Source: Actinopolyspora biskrensis
GTDB lineage: Bacteria; Actinomycetota; Actinomycetes; Mycobacteriales; Pseudonocardiaceae
Length of the DNA: 64,000 nt
Assembly: GCF_013408175.1 (NCBI RefSeq)
Contig: NZ_JACBYW010000002.1
Location: forward strand, 434,001-498,000
Reading direction: 5' to 3'
Below the pieces are notes generated by a model that saw only the letters and a program-made list of their open reading frames with translations, was not told the DNA's origin and ran no database searches. Numbering within the stretch: position 1 is the first letter of the stretch; each line of letters starts with the position of its first letter. Positions 34,351 to 46,595 of the stretch are shown here, piece after piece. A program made the position numbers and the translations under genes.

Positions 34351-34772
34351 GCTGCGCACGCGCATTGTACGACAACTATCGGGCGATTGCCTTTGTCGGA
34401 TCGTGACCCGGGAAGTGAATGAGTGAATCCTTCCAGGTGAGAGCGGATTTTTTCACCCTGGGTAACTGCTCGAATCACGCGATCATCCCATTTTTATGAT
34501 TAGGGTCACAGCTATTTGCTGTTGCATTTTTCGTGAATGCGCCTAAGTTGGGTTCTCGGCGTACGGAATCTGCGCCGGGATCGGACGGCAAAGGTGCCGA
34601 CCGAGTGTGCTGATCGATGCCAGCGCGCGGCCCGCTAGTCCGGCTGCCCGCATCGGTCCGGCGTGCCCCTTGTGTGAGGTGACCCGGCGCGCCCGTGAGA
34701 GCTCGGGGCGGCGAATTCGCCGCGGTTCCGAGCGATGCAGTGGCGCTTGACCAACGCGAGTGGGAGCTGAGT

Positions 34773-36470
34773 ATGACCAAGAGCGTGGACGATCTTGTCC
34801 GTGGTGACCAGGAAGGGGACGATCAGGACCCGGTGCGCCGCGAGCAGCAGACGTTCGGCGACAATCCGTTGGAAGTACGCGACACTGATCACTACACGCA
34901 TGAGTACGTCGGTGGTTTTGTCGACAAGTGGGACGATCTGATCGATTGGAAGAAGCGCTACGAAAGCGAGGGCAGCTTCTTCATCGATCAATTGCGCGCA
35001 CGCGGTGTCAAGACCGTGCTGGACGCGGCGGCCGGGACCGGTTTCCACTCGGTCCGGCTGCTCGAGGAGGGGTTTGAGACCGTCAGCGCGGACGGCAGCC
35101 CGCAGATGCTGGCCAAGGCCTTCAGTAACGGACTGGCCTACAACGGTCACATTCTGCGTGTGGTCAACGCGGACTGGCGTTGGCTCAACCGCGACGTGCA
35201 CGGCGAATACGACGCGATCATCTGCCTGGGCAACTCCTTTACCCACCTGTTCTCGGAGCGGGACCGGCGCAAGACGCTGGCGGAGTTCTACGCGATGCTC
35301 AAGCACGACGGTGTCCTGATCATCGACCAGCGAAACTACGACTCCATTCTTGACACCGGCTTCTCCAGTAAGCACACGTATTACTACGCCGGTGAGGACG
35401 TTTCCGCGGAGCCCGACCACATCGACGACGGACTGGCGCGGTTCAAGTACACGTTCCCGGACAAGTCCGAATTCTTCCTGAACATGTATCCGCTGCGGAA
35501 AGACTACATGCGGCGGCTCATGCGTGAGGTCGGTTTCCAGAGGATTGACACCTACGGTGACTTCCAGGAAACTTACGGAGAAGACGAGCCCGACTTCTAC
35601 ATCCACGTCGCGGAGAAGAGCTACCGCACCGAGGACGAGTTCGTCGACATGTACTCGAACGCGGTGCACACCGCGCGGGACTACTACAACTCCGAGGACG
35701 CGGACAACTTCTACTACCACGTCTGGGGCGGCAACGACATCCACGTCGGGCTGTACCAGACGCCGCAGGAGGACATCGCCACCGCCAGTGAGCGCACTGT
35801 CCAGCGGATGGCGAGCAAGGTTGACATCAGCCCCGAAACCAGGATTCTGGATCTCGGTGCCGGCTACGGCGGAGCCGCGCGGTACCTGGCCAGGACCTAC
35901 GGCTGCCACGTCACCTGCCTCAACCTCAGCGAGGTGGAGAACCAGCGCAACCGCGAGATCACTCGTGCCGAGGGGCTCGAGCACCTGATCGACGTGACCG
36001 ACGGTTCCTTCGAGGACCTTCCCTACCAGGACAACGCGTTCGACGTGGTCTGGTCGCAGGACTCCTTCCTCCACAGCGGTGACCGCGGCAGGGTCATGGA
36101 AGAGGTGACCCGGGTCCTCAAGCCGAAGGGTTCGGTGCTGTTCACCGACCCGATGGCCTCCGACTCGGCGAAGAAGAACGAGCTCGGTCCCATCCTGGAC
36201 AGGCTGCACCTGGACTCGCTCGGCTCGCCCGGTTTCTACCGGAGGGAGCTGACGCGCCTCGGGTTGCAGAACATCGAGTTCGAGGACCTCAGCGAATACC
36301 TGCCCGTCCACTACGGCCGGGTTCTGGAAGTGCTGGAGAGCCGGGAGAACGAGCTTGCCGACTTCATCGGCGAGGAGTACCGAGCTCACATGAAGACCGG
36401 GCTGCGCAACTGGGTGCAGGCCGGCAATGGCGGGAGCCTGGCCTGGGGCATCATCCACGCCAGGGCATGA
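34773..36470 (+). CDS. Glycine/sarcosine/dimethylglycine N-methyltransferase fusion
   Basis: A 565-residue fusion of two SAM-dependent methyltransferases that makes glycine betaine from glycine in three steps, via sarcosine and dimethylglycine. The N-terminal GSMT half (about 20-270) has VLDAAAGTGFHSVRLLEEGF as SAM motif I and NADWRWLNRD. The C-terminal SDMT half (about 290-565) has ILDLGAGYGGAARYLARTYG and DVVWSQDSFLHSGDR. Fusion and length match the Actinopolyspora halophila enzyme. The ATG at 34773 follows GGGAG; an extension to 34695 is possible but unlike the known protein. It heads an operon that regenerates the SAM it uses. Confidence 0.95.
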   Translation: MTKSVDDLVRGDQEGDDQDPVRREQQTFGDNPLEVRDTDHYTHEYVGGFVDKWDDLIDWKKRYESEGSFFIDQLRARGVKTVLDAAAGTGFHSVRLLEEGFETVSADGSPQMLAKAFSNGLAYNGHILRVVNADWRWLNRDVHGEYDAIICLGNSFTHLFSERDRRKTLAEFYAMLKHDGVLIIDQRNYDSILDTGFSSKHTYYYAGEDVSAEPDHIDDGLARFKYTFPDKSEFFLNMYPLRKDYMRRLMREVGFQRIDTYGDFQETYGEDEPDFYIHVAEKSYRTEDEFVDMYSNAVHTARDYYNSEDADNFYYHVWGGNDIHVGLYQTPQEDIATASERTVQRMASKVDISPETRILDLGAGYGGAARYLARTYGCHVTCLNLSEVENQRNREITRAEGLEHLIDVTDGSFEDLPYQDNAFDVVWSQDSFLHSGDRGRVMEEVTRVLKPKGSVLFTDPMASDSAKKNELGPILDRLHLDSLGSPGFYRRELTRLGLQNIEFEDLSEYLPVHYGRVLEVLESRENELADFIGEEYRAHMKTGLRNWVQAGNGGSLAWGIIHARA

Positions 36471-36527
36471 CAGCCGTCGCGTACGAAGAACGATCCGAAG
36501 CAGTTAGCAGTGAGGTGAAGATCAGCC

Positions 36528-37730
36528 GTGACTGAGATGAACCGCAGGTTGTTCACCAGTGAGTCCGTGACCGAGGGCCACCCGGACAAGATGGCCGACT
36601 CGATCAGCGACGCGATCCTGGACGCGATGCTGGCTCAGGACCCCCGCTCCCGCGTGGCCATGGAGACCATGATCACCACCGGGCAGGTGCACCTGGCCGG
36701 TGAGGTGACCACCGAGGCCGACGTCGACCTGCCCGCGATCGTGCGGGAGAAGGTCCTCGAGATCGGCTACGACAACTCGGCCAAGGGCTTCGACGGAGAC
36801 TCCTGCGGCATCAACGTCTCCATCGACGCGCAGTCGCCGGACATCGGGCAGGGCGTGGACTCCGCGCACGAGTCCCGCGTCGAGGGTGCTATCGACGAGA
36901 TCGCCAGTCAGGGCGCCGGCGACCAGGGGCTGATGTTCGGCTACGCCACCAGCGAGACCGACGAGCTCATGCCGCTGCCGATCGCGCTGGCTCACCGCAT
37001 GTCGCGTCGGCTGACCCGCGTGCGCAACGACGGCACGCTGCCGTACCTGCGTGCCGACGGCAAGACCCAGGTCACCGTCGAGTACGCCGGTGACCAGCCG
37101 GTGCGCCTGGACACCACGGTGCTGTCCAGCCAGCACGCCGAGGACGTCGACCTCGACAAGCAGCTGATCCCCGAGGTTCGGGACAAGGTCATCAACCCGG
37201 AGATCGAGAAGGTCGGGTTGGACACCTCGGACATGCGTCTGCTGGTGAACCCGACGGGTCGGTTCGTCACGGGTGGCCCGATGGGTGACTGCGGCCTGAC
37301 CGGCCGCAAGATCATCGTCGACACCTACGGCGGGATGGCCCGCCACGGTGGTGGCGCGTTCTCGGGCAAGGACCCGTCGAAGGTGGACCGCTCGGCGGCC
37401 TACGCCACGCGCTGGGTGGCCAAGAACGTCGTGGCCGCCGGGCTGGCCGACCGCGTGGAGGTGCAGACCGCCTTCGCGATCGGCAAGGCCGCGCCGGTGG
37501 GCCTGTTCGTGGAGACCTTCGGCACCGAGAACGTGGACCCGGACAAGATCCAGGCCGCGATCAACGAGGTGTTCGACCTGCGTCCGGCGGCGATCATCCG
37601 GGACCTGGACCTGCTGCACCCGATCTACGCGCCGACGGCGGCCTACGGCCACTTCGGTCGTACGGATGTGGACCTGCCCTGGGAACGCACCAACCGCGTC
37701 GAGGCCCTGAAGAACGCCGCTGGCCTCTGA
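36528..37730 (+). CDS. metK: S-adenosylmethionine synthetase
   Basis: A 400-residue methionine adenosyltransferase, making SAM from methionine and ATP with release of phosphate and diphosphate. [20 protein letters not shown] holds the first ATP and metal contacts. The hexapeptide [12 protein letters not shown] and [22 protein letters not shown] (P-loop-like, with Lys and Asp for phosphate and metal) are intact. It starts 57 bases after the fused methyltransferase, so the SAM producer and its main consumer are on one transcript. A strong hairpin follows the gene. Confidence 0.95.
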
Positions 37731-37756
37731 CAGCCGAATACGCGACGTATCGTCGA

Positions 37757-37791
37757 CGCCGCGGGGCGCGGGGGAGCCGCGCCCCGCGGCG
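37757..37791 (+). terminator. 15-bp-stem hairpin between metK and adoK
   Basis: CGCCGCGGGGCGCGG pairs perfectly with CCGCGCCCCGCGGCG around a 5-base loop. No T run follows. It can act as a partial terminator or a stability element inside the operon, separating metK from the genes for recycling. Confidence 0.6.
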
Positions 37792-37878
37792 TGGCGAGCA
37801 GTACCAGGTTCGCTCACCCCAGATGACCGCCGGCCGGTGGCGGACCACCGACATCGGCCTTGGTGAAGGAGTTTCGCA

Positions 37879-38853
37879 GTGCAAATTGCGGTGACCGGCT
37901 CGATCGCCACCGACCATTTGATGTCTTTCCCCGGCAAGATCGCCGACCAGCTCATCGCGGACCGGCTCGACCAGGTTTCGCTGTCGTTCCTCGTGGACGA
38001 GCTGGAGGTCCGCCGTGGTGGTGTCGCGGGCAACATCGCGTTCGGCCTCGGCCAACTCGGCGTGAAGTCGCTGTTGGTCGGTGCGGTCGGCGAGGACTTC
38101 GCCGAGTACCGCACCTGGTTGGAACGCCACAGCGTCGACACCAGCACGGTTCACACCTCGAAGACGGCCCACACGGCCCGCTTCACGTGCACCACGGACG
38201 AGACGCAGAACCAGATCGCCTCGTTCTACCCGGGCGCCATGTCCGAGGCGCGCGAGATCGAGCTCAAGCCGATCGCCGACCGAGTGGGCGGCCTGGATCT
38301 CGTGGTCGTCTCGGCGAACGATCCCGAGGCGATGCTGCGGCACAGTCAGGAATGCCGCGACCGCGGCTACGAGTTCCTGGCTGATCCGGGGCAGCAGCTC
38401 GCCCGCATGGACGGTCCGCAGATCCGTAAGCTGGTGGAGGGTGCCAAGTACCTGTTCACCAACGAGTACGAGCACAGCCTTCTGCTGCAGACCACCGGGC
38501 TCTCGCACGCCGAGGTGCTGCAGCAGGTCGGCATGTGGGTCACTTCGCTGGGCGAGAACGGTGTGCGCATCGAGTCCGCCTCCGCGAAGACGATCGAGAT
38601 CGCGCCGGTGAAGCCGAAGCAGGTCGGCGACCCGACCGGTGTCGGCGACGCGCTGCGCGCGGGCTTTCTCGCCGGGTTGTCGAACGGGCTGGACCTGGAG
38701 CGTTCCATCCAGCTCGGCTGCACCCTCGCGACCACCTCCCTGGAGACGGACGGTCCCCAGGAATACGACGTGGAGAAGGGCTCGTTCGTGTCCAGGTTCG
38801 CCGAGGCTTACGGCAACCAGGCCGCGGGTGAAATCGAGTCCGTGCTTCGCTGA
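37879..38853 (+). CDS. adoK: Adenosine kinase (PfkB family)
   Basis: A 324-residue PfkB kinase very like mycobacterial adenosine kinase. The N-terminus VTGSIATDHLMSFPGK and the substrate-binding RRGGVAGNIAFGLGQLG are characteristic. TARFTCTTDETQNQIASFYP is shared with AdoK, and the catalytic Asp lies in DPTGVGDALRAGFL. It phosphorylates adenosine to AMP. In this operon it removes the adenosine released by SAH hydrolysis and so pulls the methyl cycle forward. Ribokinase-type sugar kinases are the alternative but lack these stretches. Confidence 0.88.
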   Translation: MQIAVTGSIATDHLMSFPGKIADQLIADRLDQVSLSFLVDELEVRRGGVAGNIAFGLGQLGVKSLLVGAVGEDFAEYRTWLERHSVDTSTVHTSKTAHTARFTCTTDETQNQIASFYPGAMSEAREIELKPIADRVGGLDLVVVSANDPEAMLRHSQECRDRGYEFLADPGQQLARMDGPQIRKLVEGAKYLFTNEYEHSLLLQTTGLSHAEVLQQVGMWVTSLGENGVRIESASAKTIEIAPVKPKQVGDPTGVGDALRAGFLAGLSNGLDLERSIQLGCTLATTSLETDGPQEYDVEKGSFVSRFAEAYGNQAAGEIESVLR

Positions 38854-38873
38854 AGCGTTCGGAAGGCAGCGTG

Positions 38874-41800
38874 ATGACGACACAGGAAGAATCGGGCCGT
38901 CGGGACAACGACCCGAGTGGGTTCCTCACGGCCATCGCCGAACGCGTGCTCGTCGGGGACGGCGGCATGGGTACGGCGTTGCAGGAGCACGACCTGACCC
39001 TGGAGGACTTCAACAACCTCGAGGGCTGTAACGAGATCCTCAACGAAACGCGTCCCGACGTCGTTCGTTCGGTCTACCGGGGCTTCCTGGAGAACGGCTC
39101 GGACGCCATCGAGTCGAACACGTTCGGCTGCAACCTGCCGAACCTCGGCGAGTACGGGATCGAGGACCGCATCCGGGACCTCGCCGAGAAGGGCGTGGCG
39201 CTGGCGCGGGAGTGCTGCGACGAGTACTCCACCCCGGAGAAACCGCGCTTCATACTGGGGTCGATGGGACCGGGGACCAAGCTCCCCACCCTCGGGCACG
39301 CGCCGTACGCCGATCTGCGGGACGCCTACCACGAGCAGGTGCTGGGCATGCTCGACGGCGGCGTCGACGTGATCCTGGTGGAGACCTCGCAGGACCTGCT
39401 GCAGACCAAGGCGTCGATCACCGCGGCCAAGCGGGCGATGGAGCAGCAGCAGAAGTGGGTGCCGATCATCGCCCACGTCACAGTCGAGCAGACCGGCACG
39501 ATGCTGGTCGGCTCCGAGATCGGTGCGGCGCTGACGGCGCTGGAGCCGCTCGGCATCGACATGATCGGTATGAACTGTGCGACCGGCCCGGCCGAGATGA
39601 CCGAGCACCTGCGGGTGCTGGCCGACCACGCGACCGTCCCGATCTCGGTGATGCCGAACGCAGGCCTCCCCGAACTGGGTCCGAACGGCGCCGTCTACCC
39701 GCTGCAGCCCCACGAGCTGTCCGAGGCGCTCGTCGACTTCGTCAACAACTACGGTGCCCGCCTCGTCGGCGGTTGCTGTGGTGTGACCGGTGAGCACGTG
39801 CGCCAGGTCGCCGAGGCGGTCCGCGGGATCAGCCCGACTCCGCGCGAGCCGGAGGTGGTTCCCTCGGTCTCGTCGATGTACCAGGCGATCCCCTTCGAGC
39901 AGGAAGCCTCGATCTTCAACGTCGGCGAGCGCACCAACGCCAACGGTTCCAAGGCGTTCCGCGAGGCGATGATCGAGCAGCGCTACGACGACTGCGTCGA
40001 GATCGCCAAGGGGCAGACCCGCGAGGGTGCGCACATGCTCGACCTGTGCGTGGACTACGTGGGCCGGGACGGCACCCACGACATGCGGGAGCTGGCCTCG
40101 CGGCTGGCCACTTCCTCCACACTGCCGGTCATGGTCGACTCCACCGAGCCCGCGGTGATCGAGGCCGGTTTGGAGCACCTCGGCGGTCGGTGCGCGATCA
40201 ACTCGATCAACTACGAGGACGGCACCGAAGAGGGCGGGCGCTACGACCGGGTCATGAAGATGGCCGTCGAGCACGGCGCCACCATGGTCTGCACCTGCAT
40301 CGACGAGGACGGCCAGGCGCGTGACGCGGAGTGGAAGCTGCGCGTGGCCGAGCGACTCATCGACGACCTCACCAACAACTGGGGTCTGGACAAGTCCGCG
40401 ATCATCATCGACACCCTGGTCTTCCCGATCACCACGGGCCAGGAGGAGGTCCGCAAGGACGCCATCGAGACGATCAACGCGATCCGGGAGCTCAAGCGGC
40501 GGCACCCCGAGGTGCAGACCACGCTGGGGCTGTCGAACGTCTCCTTCGGGCTCAACGCCGCGGCCCGGCAGGTGCTCAACTCGGTCTTCCTCAACGAGTG
40601 CAGGGAAGCCGGGCTGGACAGCGCGATCCTGCACGCCTCCAAGATCCTGCCGATGAACAGGATCGACGAGGAGGCCCGCCAGGTCGCCCTGGACCTCGTC
40701 TACGACCGGCGCACGGAGGCCACCGAGACCGAGCCGGCCTACGACCCGCTGCAGAAGCTCATGGCGCTGTTCGAGGGCAAGTCGGCCGAGTCCAGCGGTG
40801 CGTCCAAGGCCGAGGAACTCGCGGCGATGCCGCTGTTCGAACGTCTGCAGCAGCGCATCATCGACGGTGAGATGAACGGTCTCAACGCCGATCTCGACGA
40901 GGCGATGAAGGAGAAGAAGCCGCTCGAGATCGTCAACGACACCCTGTTGGCGGGGATGAAGGTCGTCGGTGATCTCTTCGGCGCCGGGCAGATGCAGCTG
41001 CCGTTCGTGCTGCAGGCCGCCGAGGCCATGAAGACGGCGGTGGCCCACCTCGAGCCGCACATGGACAAGGACGACTCCGGCGGCAAGGGCAAGCTGCTGT
41101 TGGCCACGGTCAAGGGCGATGTGCACGACATCGGCAAGAACCTGGTCGACATCATCGTGTCCAACAACGGCTACGACGTGGTCAACATCGGCATCAAGCA
41201 GCCGATCAACACCATCCTCGAAGAGGCCGAGAAGAACAACGTCGACGCGATCGGCATGTCCGGACTGCTGGTCAAGTCCACGGTGATCATGAAGGAGAAC
41301 CTGGAGGAGATGAACTCCAGGGGAATCTCCGAGAAGTACCCGGTCCTGCTCGGCGGTGCCGCTCTCACCAGGTCCTTCGTCGAGAACGACCTCGACGAGA
41401 TGTACGAGGGCGACGTGCGTTACGCCAAGGACGCCTTCGAGGGGCTCAAGCTCATGGACCGCGTCATGCAGTCCAAGCGTGGCGACGCCCCGGAGGAGGA
41501 CGAGGCGGAACAGGCGAAGAAGGCCGAGCGCAAGGCCAGGCGCGAGCGCTCCAACCGGATCGCCGAGAAGCGCAAGGAGGAGCAGGGGCCGGAACCCGAC
41601 GAACGGGACGACAGCGTTCGCTCCGACGTCGACCCGGACGTGCCGGTGCCGACCCCGCCGTTCTGGGGTCCCAAGGTCGTCAAGGGCCTGTCCAGCAACG
41701 AGTACCTCTCGCTGCTCGACGAGCGGGCCACGTTCTTCGGACAGTGGGGGCTGCGCGGCGCCAAGAAGGGCCAGGGGCCGAGCTACGAGGAGCTGGTGGA

Positions 41801-42479
41801 GAGCGACGGACGTCCGCGGCTGCGTGCGTGGATGGACGAGCTGGCCACCAAGGGCATCCTCCAGCACGCCGCTCTGGTCTACGGCTACTTCCCCTGCGTG
41901 TCCGAGGGCAACGACCTGATCGTGCTGGACAAGGACGCCCCGGACGCTCCGGAGCGCTACCGCTTCAACTTCCCGAGGCAGAAGCGTGACCGCAGGCTGT
42001 GCCTGGCCGACTTCTACCGTTCGCGGGAGAAGGCGGAAGCAACCGGACAGGTCGACGTGCTCCCGCTGCAGCTGGTGACGATGGGACAGCCCATCGCCGA
42101 CTACGCGAACGAGCTGTTCGCCTCCGACGCCTACAGGGACTACCTGGAGATCCACGGGCTCGGTGTGCAGCTCACCGAGGCGATGGCCGAGTACTGGCAC
42201 CGCCGCATCCGCAGCGAGCTGCAGTGGTCCTCCGGTGAGACGGTCGCCTCCGAGGACCCGGCGAACGTCGAGGAGTTCTTCAAGCTCGGTTACCGGGGCG
42301 CCCGGTTCTCGCTCGGCTACGGTGCCTGCCCGGACCTGGAGGACCGCGCCAAGATCGTCGATCTTCTCGGTTCGGAGAACATCGGGGTCGAGCTCTCGGA
42401 GGAGTACCAGCTGCATCCGGAGCAGTCCACGGACGCGATCGTGGCCCACCACCCCGAGGCCAAGTACTTCAACACCTGA
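38874..42479 (+). CDS. metH: Cobalamin-dependent methionine synthase
   Basis: A full-length 1201-residue MetH that transfers the methyl of methyl-THF to homocysteine. Domains in order: homocysteine domain (about 20-320, zinc ligands near GGCCGVTGEH), pterin domain (about 340-610), cobalamin cap and binding domain (about 640-870, with the His ligand in GDVHDIGKNLVDI) and the reactivation domain (about 930-1200). A highly charged linker rich in Lys, Arg and Glu (about 868-925) joins the last two. The ATG at 38874 has better spacing to GGAAGG than the GTG at 38871. In this operon it regenerates methionine for metK. Confidence 0.95.
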   Translation: MTTQEESGRRDNDPSGFLTAIAERVLVGDGGMGTALQEHDLTLEDFNNLEGCNEILNETRPDVVRSVYRGFLENGSDAIESNTFGCNLPNLGEYGIEDRIRDLAEKGVALARECCDEYSTPEKPRFILGSMGPGTKLPTLGHAPYADLRDAYHEQVLGMLDGGVDVILVETSQDLLQTKASITAAKRAMEQQQKWVPIIAHVTVEQTGTMLVGSEIGAALTALEPLGIDMIGMNCATGPAEMTEHLRVLADHATVPISVMPNAGLPELGPNGAVYPLQPHELSEALVDFVNNYGARLVGGCCGVTGEHVRQVAEAVRGISPTPREPEVVPSVSSMYQAIPFEQEASIFNVGERTNANGSKAFREAMIEQRYDDCVEIAKGQTREGAHMLDLCVDYVGRDGTHDMRELASRLATSSTLPVMVDSTEPAVIEAGLEHLGGRCAINSINYEDGTEEGGRYDRVMKMAVEHGATMVCTCIDEDGQARDAEWKLRVAERLIDDLTNNWGLDKSAIIIDTLVFPITTGQEEVRKDAIETINAIRELKRRHPEVQTTLGLSNVSFGLNAAARQVLNSVFLNECREAGLDSAILHASKILPMNRIDEEARQVALDLVYDRRTEATETEPAYDPLQKLMALFEGKSAESSGASKAEELAAMPLFERLQQRIIDGEMNGLNADLDEAMKEKKPLEIVNDTLLAGMKVVGDLFGAGQMQLPFVLQAAEAMKTAVAHLEPHMDKDDSGGKGKLLLATVKGDVHDIGKNLVDIIVSNNGYDVVNIGIKQPINTILEEAEKNNVDAIGMSGLLVKSTVIMKENLEEMNSRGISEKYPVLLGGAALTRSFVENDLDEMYEGDVRYAKDAFEGLKLMDRVMQSKRGDAPEEDEAEQAKKAERKARRERSNRIAEKRKEEQGPEPDERDDSVRSDVDPDVPVPTPPFWGPKVVKGLSSNEYLSLLDERATFFGQWGLRGAKKGQGPSYEELVESDGRPRLRAWMDELATKGILQHAALVYGYFPCVSEGNDLIVLDKDAPDAPERYRFNFPRQKRDRRLCLADFYRSREKAEATGQVDVLPLQLVTMGQPIADYANELFASDAYRDYLEIHGLGVQLTEAMAEYWHRRIRSELQWSSGETVASEDPANVEEFFKLGYRGARFSLGYGACPDLEDRAKIVDLLGSENIGVELSEEYQLHPEQSTDAIVAHHPEAKYFNT

Positions 42480-42539
42480 GCGGCGAAGGCGATACTGGCC
42501 GAAAAAGCTGCCCGATAGAGGAAACTAGGAAGGGAAATC

Positions 42540-44003
<1,464 letters not shown>

Positions 44004-44028
44004 TCCGGTACGTGCACGAACGCGTGTG

Positions 44029-44067
44029 ACGTGGGTGGCCACCGCTGATCGTGGTGGCCACCCACGT
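44029..44067 (+). terminator. 15-bp-stem hairpin between ahcY and metF
   Basis: ACGTGGGTGGCCACC pairs perfectly with GGTGGCCACCCACGT around a 9-base loop, with no T run after it. It lies 25 bases past the ahcY stop and 27 bases before the metF ribosome site. It may end most transcripts, leaving metF at a lower level, or protect the ahcY end. Confidence 0.6.
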
Positions 44068-44107
44068 GTACCGGACCCCGCAACGACACAGTCGAGGAGG
44101 CTTGAAC

Positions 44108-45001
44108 GTGACTCGGGTCGTGGACCGGCTACAGCCGGGCAGGACCGTGTTCTCCGTGGAGTTCTTCCCGCCGCGCAACGACGACGAAGAGCAGATCCTC
44201 TGGAAGGCCGTGCGCGAGCTGGAACCGCTGGACCCCGCCTACGTCTCGGTGACCTACGGCGCGGGCGGCTCCAGCAGGGACCGCACGATTCGCACGGTCG
44301 GGCGCATCGCCCGGGAAACCACCATGCTGCCGATGGCGCACCTGACCGGTGTGGACCACTCCAAGGACGAACTGCGCCACGTCGTCGGCTCGCTGGCCGA
44401 CGAGGGCATCCGAAACATCCTGGCGATCCGAGGGGATCCACCTGGGGACCCGATGGGGCAGTGGATCCCGCATCCGGACGGAATCCTCTACGCGGACGAA
44501 CTGGTGAGCCTGATTCGCTCCTGCGGGGACTTCTCGGTGGGCGTGGCCGCGTTTCCGCACATGCATCCGCGCTCCGCGGACCTCGAGACGGAGACGGACC
44601 ACCTCGTCGGCAAGATCCGGGCCGGGTCGGAGTTCGCGGTCGCGCAGCTTTTCCTGCAGCCCGAGTACTTCCTGAGGCTGCGGGACCGGCTGGCGGCCCG
44701 CGACTGCCACGTTCCCCTGCTCCCCGGGGTCATGCCGATCACGACTCCCAAGGTGTTGAGCAAGTTCCAGCACCTGGCCGGGGTTCCCGTTCCCCCGGAG
44801 GTCTCCGCGGTGCTCGATCCCCTGGAGGACGACCCGAAGGCCTTCCGCGCCGCGGGAATAGACCTGACGACCAAGTTGTGCGAACGGTTGATCTCGGAAG
44901 GCGTTCCCGGACTGCACTTCTACAGCCTCAACCGGGCGAAGGCCACCCGTGACGTGGTGGACAACCTCGGCCTGGCCGAGGGAGTGCTCCAGCCCGCCTG
45001 A
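44108..45001 (+). CDS. metF: Methylenetetrahydrofolate reductase
   Basis: A 297-residue FAD-dependent reductase that makes 5-methyl-THF for MetH. VFSVEFFPPRNDDEEQ holds the catalytic Glu; VSVTYGAGGSSRDRT and LAIRGDPPGD are family motifs, and QLFLQPEYFLRLRDR lies in the C-terminal half of the barrel. The GTG at 44108 has GAGGAGG seven bases upstream. Its place after metH and ahcY closes the methyl cycle of the betaine operon, drawing one-carbon units from folate. Confidence 0.92.
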   Translation: MTRVVDRLQPGRTVFSVEFFPPRNDDEEQILWKAVRELEPLDPAYVSVTYGAGGSSRDRTIRTVGRIARETTMLPMAHLTGVDHSKDELRHVVGSLADEGIRNILAIRGDPPGDPMGQWIPHPDGILYADELVSLIRSCGDFSVGVAAFPHMHPRSADLETETDHLVGKIRAGSEFAVAQLFLQPEYFLRLRDRLAARDCHVPLLPGVMPITTPKVLSKFQHLAGVPVPPEVSAVLDPLEDDPKAFRAAGIDLTTKLCERLISEGVPGLHFYSLNRAKATRDVVDNLGLAEGVLQPA

Positions 45002-45248
45002 ACCGTACGCGCCGGATGCCGCCCCGCCGCCGGGGCCCGAGGCACGGGTCGTCGGGAGGGCTCCCGGCGCGCGCTCCGTCGGCCGGAGCGACGGGTCGCC
45101 ACAGCGCGGGAAACGCGACTCGCGGCCGGTGCCGTGTCCTTCTCGCCGAGACCGAGAAGTCAACCGCGGGCGGTCTCACGCTCACGTGCTCGTCACCTCC
45201 GTGCGATTCGGTGGAACTCGTCCCCGAAGACCCGTACTGGAGGATTCG

Positions 45249-46595
45249 TTGAGCCACGAGTCCAGCTCCCACCACCTCGACCGTCGCCGTTTCCTCGCCG
45301 CCACCGGCCTGGTCGGCGCGACCGGAGCGCTGCAGGCGCTGATGAGCAACACCGCCGCGGCGGCCGGGCCCGGTCGTGGCAACAACCGCGGCGTCCGCGC
45401 TGCGGACAACGGCGGGTACGGTCCGCTGCAACCCGCCTCCCCGGACGGTGAGCTCCTGCTGCCGGCCGGGTTCTCCTACGTCGCCTTCGGCGAGACCGGC
45501 AGCCTCATGCGGGACGGAACTCCGACTCCGTCGCGGCACGACGGAATGGCTGCCTTCGCCGCCGGCGACGGCGGGATCCGACTGGTCCGCAACCACGAAC
45601 AGACCGACGGTTCGGCGTTCGCGCAACCGAACTACGATCCGTCCGGCGCGGGCGGGACGACCACCTCGGTGTTCGATCCGGACCACATGCGTCTGGTCGA
45701 GTCGTTCCCGACGTTGGCGGGCACGGTGCGCAACTGCGCCGGTGGCCCCACCCCGAGCGGATCCTGGTTGTCCTGTGAGGAAACCTTCACGGGGCTGGGC
45801 GGGCAGCATCCGCACGGGTACGTGTTCGAGGTGCCCGCCGACTCCGAAGGCCCCGTCGAGGCCGTTCCCCTGCCGGCCATGGGGCGCTTCACCCACGAGG
45901 CCGTGGCGGTGGACCCGGAGACCGGCACCGTCTACGAGACCGAGGACCGGGGCAGCGCCGGTTTCTACCGGTTCGTCCCGAACGATCCGGCCGACCTGTC
46001 CGCAGGCGGCAGCCTGCAGATGCTCGCGATCGTCGATCAACCCCGCTACGACACGCGCAACGGCCAGCGTCCCGGCGATCCGCTGCCGGTCGAGTGGGTC
46101 GACATCGCCGAGCCCGACCCGGACAGCGACGATTCGCTCGCGGTGTTCTACCAGGGCAGGGAGCAGGGCGGTGCGGTCTTCGCCCGGCTGGAAGGAGCCT
46201 GGTTCGGCGAGGGGTCGGTGTTCGTCAACTCCACCAGCGGTGGCGACGCGGGGCTCGGGCAGGTGTGGCAGTACCGGCCGGACGGATCCTCCGGCGGTCA
46301 GTTGATCCTCGTCTACGAGTCCACTGATCCCGAGCTGCTGGAAAGCCCGGACAACATCTGCGTCTCACCGAACAGCGGCGGGTTGGTGCTCTGCGAGGAC
46401 GGCGGCGGTTCCGACATGCTGCGGGGCGTGACCACCGACGGCGAGATCTTCGACTTCGCCGCGCTGAACAGCTCCAACACCAGTGAGCTCGCCGGGGCGA
46501 CCTTCAGCCCGGACGGCAGGGTGCTCTTCTTCAACGTACAGACGCCGGGGGTGACCTACGCGGTCACCGGCCCCTGGCACAACGGCGCCCTCTGA
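45249..46595 (+). CDS. Tat-exported PhoX/DUF839 family protein
   Basis: A 448-residue secreted protein. The N-terminus has a twin-arginine signal (DRRRFLAATG, then a hydrophobic run to AAAAG). The body is a beta-propeller of the PhoX/DUF839 family, with RLVRNHEQTDGSAF, GSWLSCEETF, FTHEAVAVDPETGTVYETED and VFVNSTSGGDAGLGQVW. PhoX enzymes are calcium- and iron-dependent alkaline phosphatases, but many relatives have no proven phosphatase activity. The TTG at 45249 was chosen because GGAGGA lies just upstream and it places the Tat signal at the start. It follows the metF gene by 247 bases. Confidence 0.8.
   Translation: MSHESSSHHLDRRRFLAATGLVGATGALQALMSNTAAAAGPGRGNNRGVRAADNGGYGPLQPASPDGELLLPAGFSYVAFGETGSLMRDGTPTPSRHDGMAAFAAGDGGIRLVRNHEQTDGSAFAQPNYDPSGAGGTTTSVFDPDHMRLVESFPTLAGTVRNCAGGPTPSGSWLSCEETFTGLGGQHPHGYVFEVPADSEGPVEAVPLPAMGRFTHEAVAVDPETGTVYETEDRGSAGFYRFVPNDPADLSAGGSLQMLAIVDQPRYDTRNGQRPGDPLPVEWVDIAEPDPDSDDSLAVFYQGREQGGAVFARLEGAWFGEGSVFVNSTSGGDAGLGQVWQYRPDGSSGGQLILVYESTDPELLESPDNICVSPNSGGLVLCEDGGGSDMLRGVTTDGEIFDFAALNSSNTSELAGATFSPDGRVLFFNVQTPGVTYAVTGPWHNGAL

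What the first reader, a model, noticed from the sequence alone, without database searches (positions are those of the whole stretch)
34773..45001. Betaine synthesis fused with a complete activated-methyl cycle in one operon
The SAM-consuming fusion enzyme is followed by metK, adenosine kinase, metH, ahcY and metF. Each betaine costs three SAM and produces three SAH, so this layout supplies methyl groups, clears the inhibitor SAH and removes adenosine in one regulated unit. Individual enzymes are established; that all six are gathered is seen directly. It is a compact example of an osmolyte pathway bringing its whole cofactor supply.
Basis: partly seen in the sequence, partly recalled or inferred. 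Interest (0 to 1): 0.7.

Follow-up and report, generated by a model that had tools for sequence, protein, structure and literature searches.

The report
Betaine gene cluster with RNA leader
A bacterium related to known salt-loving soil bacteria keeps the enzyme that makes the protective solute betaine beside the genes that recycle methyl groups, an arrangement already in print, but the betaine gene also carries a conserved folded RNA leader that matched no family in the RNA library searched and may help control it.

Summary
The six genes are real and in the stated order, and the gathering is already published: Imhoff 2020 (PMC7824335, Table 4) lists Actinopolyspora halophila as fusedMT-MAT-o-MS-SAHase-MTHFR. 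The "o" slot matches an adenosine kinase here. "One regulated unit" is not shown: perfect hairpins after metK and after ahcY divide the row into leader-gsdmt-metK | adoK-metH-ahcY | metF, and stems recur at those joints in relatives but rarely at the others. "Brings its whole cofactor supply" is also off: ahcY and adoK are the only copies found, metH the only cobalamin-type enzyme, metF the only full-length copy; metK alone is duplicated, and a metE exists elsewhere. New here: a promoter-like pair followed by a ~138-nt structured RNA directly upstream of gsdmt. Pairing is 96.5% with compensatory changes, column-shuffle z is -8.2, two lineages predict each other's pairs at 83-85%, and no Rfam family matches. 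The two metK copies look like a gene-conversion mosaic. Best reading: the betaine enzyme has its own promoter and RNA-level control and draws on the cell's single methyl cycle. That the leader is a switch, and what it senses, is inferred.

The parts
34497..34511 (.). Conserved palindrome-like element (TGA-N6-TCA core; GTGA-N6-TCAC in many Saccharopolyspora), possible regulator site; its likeness to Crp-type sites is recalled, not tested
   Evidence: Alignment of 23 relatives
34522..34549 (+). Promoter-like pair TTGCAT - 16 nt - TAAGTT; start of transcription inferred near 34556
   Evidence: TTGnnT, 16-nt spacer and TAnnTT in 23 of 23 aligned relatives; the plain sigma-70 scan did not list it
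34551..34688 (+). Structured leader RNA core; helices at about 34556-34562/34572-34579, 34583-34590/34595-34602, 34613-34620/34650-34657, 34627-34636/34638-34647
   Evidence: no Rfam match
34689..34772 (+). 3' part of the leader up to the ATG: conserved in sequence, no support for structure
   Evidence: z +0.6
34773..36470 (+). gsdmt: fused glycine/sarcosine and sarcosine/dimethylglycine N-methyltransferase
36528..37730 (+). metK, SAM synthetase (second copy elsewhere in the genome)
37756..37792 (.). Perfect 16-bp hairpin, 5-nt loop, between metK and adoK; possible terminator or message-end element
37879..38853 (+). adoK: PfkB-family kinase, adenosine kinase
38871..42479 (+). metH: cobalamin-dependent methionine synthase (only full copy found)
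42540..44003 (+). ahcY: S-adenosylhomocysteine hydrolase (only copy found)
44029..44067 (.). Perfect 15-bp hairpin, 9-nt loop, between ahcY and metF
44108..45001 (+). metF: methylenetetrahydrofolate reductase; start inferred from a GAGGAGG-like ribosome site

Best explanation
The locus is a betaine-from-glycine module (promoter, structured leader RNA, fused methyltransferase, extra SAM synthetase) placed directly in front of the cell's only SAH hydrolase, adenosine kinase and cobalamin methionine synthase, with the MTHFR gene after them. The fused enzyme uses three SAM per betaine; MetK makes the SAM; AhcY splits the inhibitor SAH; AdoK removes adenosine; MetH with methyl-folate from MetF restores methionine (all inferred from the families). 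gsdmt-metK is driven by its own promoter and gated in the 5' leader by the folded RNA, more likely at translation than at termination because no T-run terminator was seen in the leader (inferred). Hairpins after metK and ahcY loosen the coupling, so that the general methyl-cycle genes need not follow betaine synthesis fully (inferred). Shown: gene content, order, copy numbers, conservation of the promoter-like pair, pairing and compensatory changes in the leader, hairpins at two joints.
For: Gene families. Single ahcY, adoK, metH and full-length metF, two metK. Promoter-like pair in 23 of 23 relatives. Leader: 96.5% of cells paired, 9 of 36 pairs changed on both sides, 0 of 500 shuffles reach the pairing or covariation score; z -8.2 against +0.4 for a coding control; cross-prediction between lineages 85.2% and 83.1% against 25-46% slid. 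Hairpins at the two joints. L022 carries two divergent gsdmt-metK copies, both with the leader, as if leader-gsdmt-metK were a module.
Against: No transcript data. Folded alone, the window's leader is no more stable than shuffles (z -0.84 and -0.70). The shuffle controls do not model the tree. The leader was found only in one lineage; other genera with the same gene order show weak or no signal of structure. The sigma-70 scan did not list the promoter. Few of the hairpins are followed by a T-run, so termination is doubtful. A metE elsewhere means MetH is not the only possible methionine synthase.
Confidence: 0.55

Rival explanations
1. One reading: one salt-induced six-gene operon read through from the gsdmt promoter; the hairpins are passive or stabilise the message.
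For: Same strand, gaps of 17-148 nt, order kept in 32 of 79 relatives; few hairpins have a T-run.
Against: Hairpins concentrate at two joints; in L031 about 3.1 kb separate metK from adoK; in L036 gsdmt-metK is followed by other genes while adoK-metH-ahcY-metF lies on another contig that ends in a further metK; sole copies of general methyl-cycle genes would be tied wholly to salt.
Confidence: 0.3
2. The conserved leader is regulatory DNA (operator sites) or a cryptic peptide rather than an acting RNA.
For: The 3' part (34689-34772) is very conserved without structural support (z +0.6); a palindrome-like element lies upstream of the promoter.
Against: Compensatory changes in the core; the signal is stronger on the sense strand (-8.2 against -2.6); the gsdmt frame upstream of the ATG meets stops in 15 of 16 relatives shown outside Actinopolyspora and a 1-nt indel in L003.
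Confidence: 0.12

Closest known systems
Actinopolyspora halophila DSM 43834 betaine cluster (Imhoff 2020, PMC7824335; passages and part of Table 4 seen)
   Same: Same order: fused methyltransferase, SAM synthetase, one unnamed slot, methionine synthase, SAH hydrolase, MTHFR
   Different: The passages seen write the third slot as 'o' and do not name a kinase or describe a leader RNA, the hairpins or copy numbers
Halorhodospira GMT-DMT-MAT-SAHase-MTHFR and Roseivivax roseus fused GMT/DMT with MTHFR-MS-MAT-SAHase (PMC7824335, passages)
   Same: Betaine methyltransferases clustered with methyl-cycle genes
   Different: Other phyla and orders of genes; Halorhodospira keeps methionine synthase elsewhere; no kinase named
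Methanohalophilus portucalensis betaine cluster (PMC3176816 and PMC5201303, passages)
   Same: SAM synthetase and SAH hydrolase beside gsmt-sdmt; adenosine kinase also stated, as unpublished data of those authors
   Different: An archaeon; separate gsmt and sdmt; two SAH hydrolases; no metH or metF reported in the passages seen
Na+ and c-di-AMP riboswitches of osmotic-stress genes (PMC9337991, abstract and passages)
   Same: Cis-acting RNAs that can control osmolyte genes
   Different: No Rfam family matched this leader; no ligand is known here

Membership tests
Fused betaine-from-glycine methyltransferase (GSDMT type) | Both methyltransferase halves in one chain | tested here: met
   NF051855 over residues 52-311 above cut-off; NF041675 over residues 321-590 at 381.8 bits, below its cut-off of 550
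Fused betaine-from-glycine methyltransferase (GSDMT type) | Makes betaine from glycine with SAM | not testable with these tools
   Needs an enzyme assay
Betaine cluster with methyl-cycle genes (Imhoff type) | Methyltransferase followed by MAT, MS, SAHase, MTHFR | tested here: met
   order as in Table 4 of PMC7824335
Actinobacterial adenosine kinase | Full-length similarity to a solved adenosine kinase | tested here: met
   4o1g and others, residues 2-323 of 324, E 2.3e-109; substrate not tested
Single operon | One transcript over all six genes | not testable with these tools
   Hairpins at two joints speak against a level transcript; no RNA data
Known riboswitch or other Rfam family | Match to an Rfam 15 model | tested here: not met
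   Window: none at gathering score in the leader and none at E up to 5; leader alone: two minus-strand matches far below their gathering scores; five relatives: none
Structured cis-acting RNA | Conserved pairing with compensatory changes upstream of a gene | tested here: met
   tree-aware test not run
Riboswitch | Binds a ligand and changes expression | not testable with these tools
   Needs probing and a reporter assay

The most novel reading that the evidence does not exclude
The leader upstream of gsdmt is a new class of cis-regulatory RNA that senses the osmotic or methyl state (an ion, c-di-AMP, betaine, SAM or SAH) and switches betaine synthesis in the Actinopolyspora-Saccharopolyspora lineage: an RNA switch on an osmolyte pathway that draws on the cell's only methyl cycle.
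Probability: 0.35. Interest if true: 0.75.

Novelty: new variant of a known kind. Interest (0 to 1): 0.5.

Why it matters
The gene gathering is in print and adds little by itself. Two points are useful. First, apart from metK (and metE as a second kind of methionine synthase), the methyl-cycle genes here are the only copies found, so betaine synthesis and all other methylation share one SAH-removal step: a testable bottleneck and a reason for separate control. Second, the conserved leader is a small, concrete target that could explain how betaine synthesis responds to salt, testable by probing and reporters. If it binds a signal, it would be an RNA sensor on a major osmolyte pathway.

Tried and rejected
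Known riboswitches and other RNA families: no Rfam match to the leader (five relatives at gathering score). Extension of gsdmt from GTG 34695: rejected. Terminator in the leader: the scan lists one + strand terminator-like site, 34508-34522, upstream of the inferred start, and none between 34551 and 34772. Further places of the leader: of 76 held sources the model finds eight matches over 100 bits, all upstream of gsdmt; everything else is E 0.31 or worse (default filters; 16 of the 23 model sequences were not searched again). In 100 stretches of the own genome (2.0 Mb, about 1.98 Mb without overlaps, of 4.95 Mb) 13 weak matches; the best, 22.6 bits, E 0.044, at L262:7113-7216, lies inside an open reading frame. 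The rest of the genome was not scanned. Structured leaders in other genera: six groups gave weak or no signal over 120-column windows (lowest z -4.0, in Streptomyces, at an energy of only -0.5). A single origin of the cluster: the AhcY tree needs at least 7 changes of the label on starred branches. The 3' part of the leader as a structured element: no support. Paper searches: (no paper); in their listings I saw no paper on a leader RNA of this gene. The library holds open-licence papers only; the original A. halophila enzyme papers (recalled) were not seen.
Full report
What is there. The enzyme names hold, with caveats: the second half of the fused methyltransferase and metF score below one NCBIfam cut-off each (381.8 against 550; 284.9 against 293.7), though both match nearly the whole model, and the kinase is named from full-length similarity to solved adenosine kinases, not from an NCBIfam model. 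The nearest named relatives are Actinopolyspora species (A. mortivallis, 94% over the fused enzyme). The species of the window's genome is not told.

Already in print. Imhoff 2020 (PMC7824335; passages and part of Table 4 seen) lists A. halophila as fusedMT-MAT-o-MS-SAHase-MTHFR, where I read 'o' as an unnamed gene, and gives the supply-and-removal argument for Halorhodospira. The Methanohalophilus papers (passages) report SAM synthetase, SAH hydrolase and, as unpublished data, adenosine kinase beside the betaine genes.

How widespread. The search for the fused enzyme confirmed 295 stretches and kept the best 80, giving 79 loci. Of the 79, 32 show gsdmt-metK-adoK-metH-ahcY in order (ahcY cut by the contig end in some), 11 of these with metF also in view; 9 are cut by a contig end earlier; 29 have gsdmt alone with at least 8 kb seen downstream; 9 are other cases: six too short to judge, L011 (ends soon after metH), L036 (metK, then other genes) and L049 (metH missing between adoK and ahcY). 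Carriers include Actinopolyspora, Halosaccharopolyspora, Saccharopolyspora, Saccharomonospora, Prauserella, Tamaricihabitans, Phytoactinopolyspora and Jiangella; the Nocardiopsis, Streptomonospora, Actinomadura, Actinomycetospora and Streptomyces loci seen have gsdmt alone. In a sample of 120 genomes of the order, own genome included, 6 hold a match at E 1e-80 or better.

Not an extra set. In the own genome ahcY, metH and adoK occur once (adoK at E 1e-50 or better). Other weak matches are a 35% stretch for ahcY and a 26% stretch for metH, in an ORF that looks to me like a homocysteine S-methyltransferase. metF occurs once in full, with a second partial match of 42 bits. metK occurs twice, the other copy just downstream of a coaBC-like ORF (my reading), and a metE exists. 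Of the 79 loci, 46 were taken back to their genomes for ahcY and metH. I count 29 of these 46 as cluster carriers, five of them (L004-L008) cut inside metK and so inferred; 20 of 29 have a single ahcY and 17 of 29 a single metH at E 1e-80 or better. In A. mzabensis (L007) ahcY is found three times, nearly identical, two of them at contig ends. In the AhcY tree (53 rows) the second copies of Prauserella and Qaidamihabitans group with family members that lack the cluster, while their cluster copies group with Saccharomonospora; this suggests gain of a cluster copy and, in some lineages, loss of the older gene. The cluster label needs at least 7 changes on well-supported branches, so a single origin is not supported. 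In the tree of the fused enzyme (29 rows) 8 rows were skipped because their matched stretch held a stop.

metK copies. The two metK of the window's genome are 89.5% identical over 1167 bases, but unevenly: one 120-base window is 100% identical and its neighbour 60%. The longest identical runs are 200 bases here, 453 in A. mortivallis and 445 in Halosaccharopolyspora; three other species tested have runs of 86-115. In the metK tree (40 rows) the cluster and general copies of the Actinopolyspora-Halosaccharopolyspora lineage form one supported group, whereas the cluster copies of Phytoactinopolyspora and Jiangella fall away from their own general copies. Repeated gene conversion fits the mosaic; no formal conversion test was run. 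Contig ends inside metK in several drafts fit too.

One unit or several. Perfect hairpins lie at 37756-37792 (16 bp) and 44029-44067 (15 bp), two of four such stems of 12 bp or more in the window. A perfect stem of 9 bp or more occurs in 15 of 35 metK-adoK gaps, 7 of 12 ahcY-metF gaps and 6 of 16 stretches of 150 nt after ahcY where metF was not seen, but in 1 of 45 gsdmt-metK, 2 of 32 adoK-metH and 1 of 33 metH-ahcY gaps (the window is counted; gaps under 5 or over 1200 nt were dropped). The quiet joints are also shorter (medians 75, 27 and 60 nt against 120 and 90.5), which lowers their chance of a stem. Few listed stems are followed by a T-run. In L031 about 3.1 kb, partly masked, lie between metK and adoK. 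In L036 gsdmt-metK is followed by other genes, while adoK-metH-ahcY-metF lies on another contig of that genome that ends in a further metK. In L022 two divergent gsdmt-metK copies each have the leader. The row thus looks modular; whether the hairpins stop transcription is untested.

The leader. Upstream of gsdmt a promoter-like pair (34522-34549) is present in 23 of 23 aligned relatives, though the plain sigma-70 scan did not list it. A conserved leader follows at once. RNAalifold gives four main helices. In 22 distinct sequences 96.5% of cells pair, 9 of 36 pairs change on both sides, and 0 of 500 shuffles reach the pairing or the covariation score (2 of 500 reach the number of such pairs, 6 of 500 the number of pair types); slid partners pair in 33-48%. 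With columns shuffled within conservation classes the core has z -8.2, the whole leader -6.1, the reverse complement -2.6, the promoter part +0.3, the 3' part +0.6 and a coding control +0.4. The fold derived from 16 Saccharopolyspora pairs 85.2% of cells in 7 Actinopolyspora-type sequences, and the reverse 83.1%, against 25-46% slid; the two groups are 59-76% identical. Against this, the window's leader folded alone is not unusually stable, and the nulls ignore the tree. The covariance model finds it only upstream of gsdmt in Actinopolyspora, Halopolyspora, Halosaccharopolyspora and Saccharopolyspora and in an unnamed same-genus genome. The model was built from these groups, so distant versions could be missed.

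Reading. The most likely picture is a betaine module with its own promoter and RNA-level control, wired to the cell's single methyl cycle. Enzyme roles follow from families; RNA control, its signal and the role of the hairpins are inferred. On rechecking the calls I changed wording and counts, not odds.

Noticed in passing
L086:8686-9705 minus strand (own genome, contig C12, match at 38704-39531): A stand-alone relative of the glycine/sarcosine half (75% identical over residues 41-316) lies apart from the cluster, between genes that look unrelated; it is also found in two other genomes of the order sample.
   Followed up: partly
window 36528-37730 and L002:772-1937: The two metK copies are a mosaic of identical and diverged stretches, as gene conversion would leave, with a block at about bases 600-720 that stays diverged in the pairs shown.
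   Followed up: partly
L022:1016-9957: Saccharopolyspora dendranthemae carries two divergent gsdmt copies with metK, both with the leader.
   Followed up: no
   Followed up: no
L088 and L089: A same-family genome has gsdmt-metK at one contig end and metK-adoK-ahcY at another, without metH; its metH match is only 32% identical and elsewhere.
   Followed up: no
window 44949-46595: A PhoX-type protein follows metF on the same strand; its true start is probably further in, so shared transcription is open.
   Followed up: no
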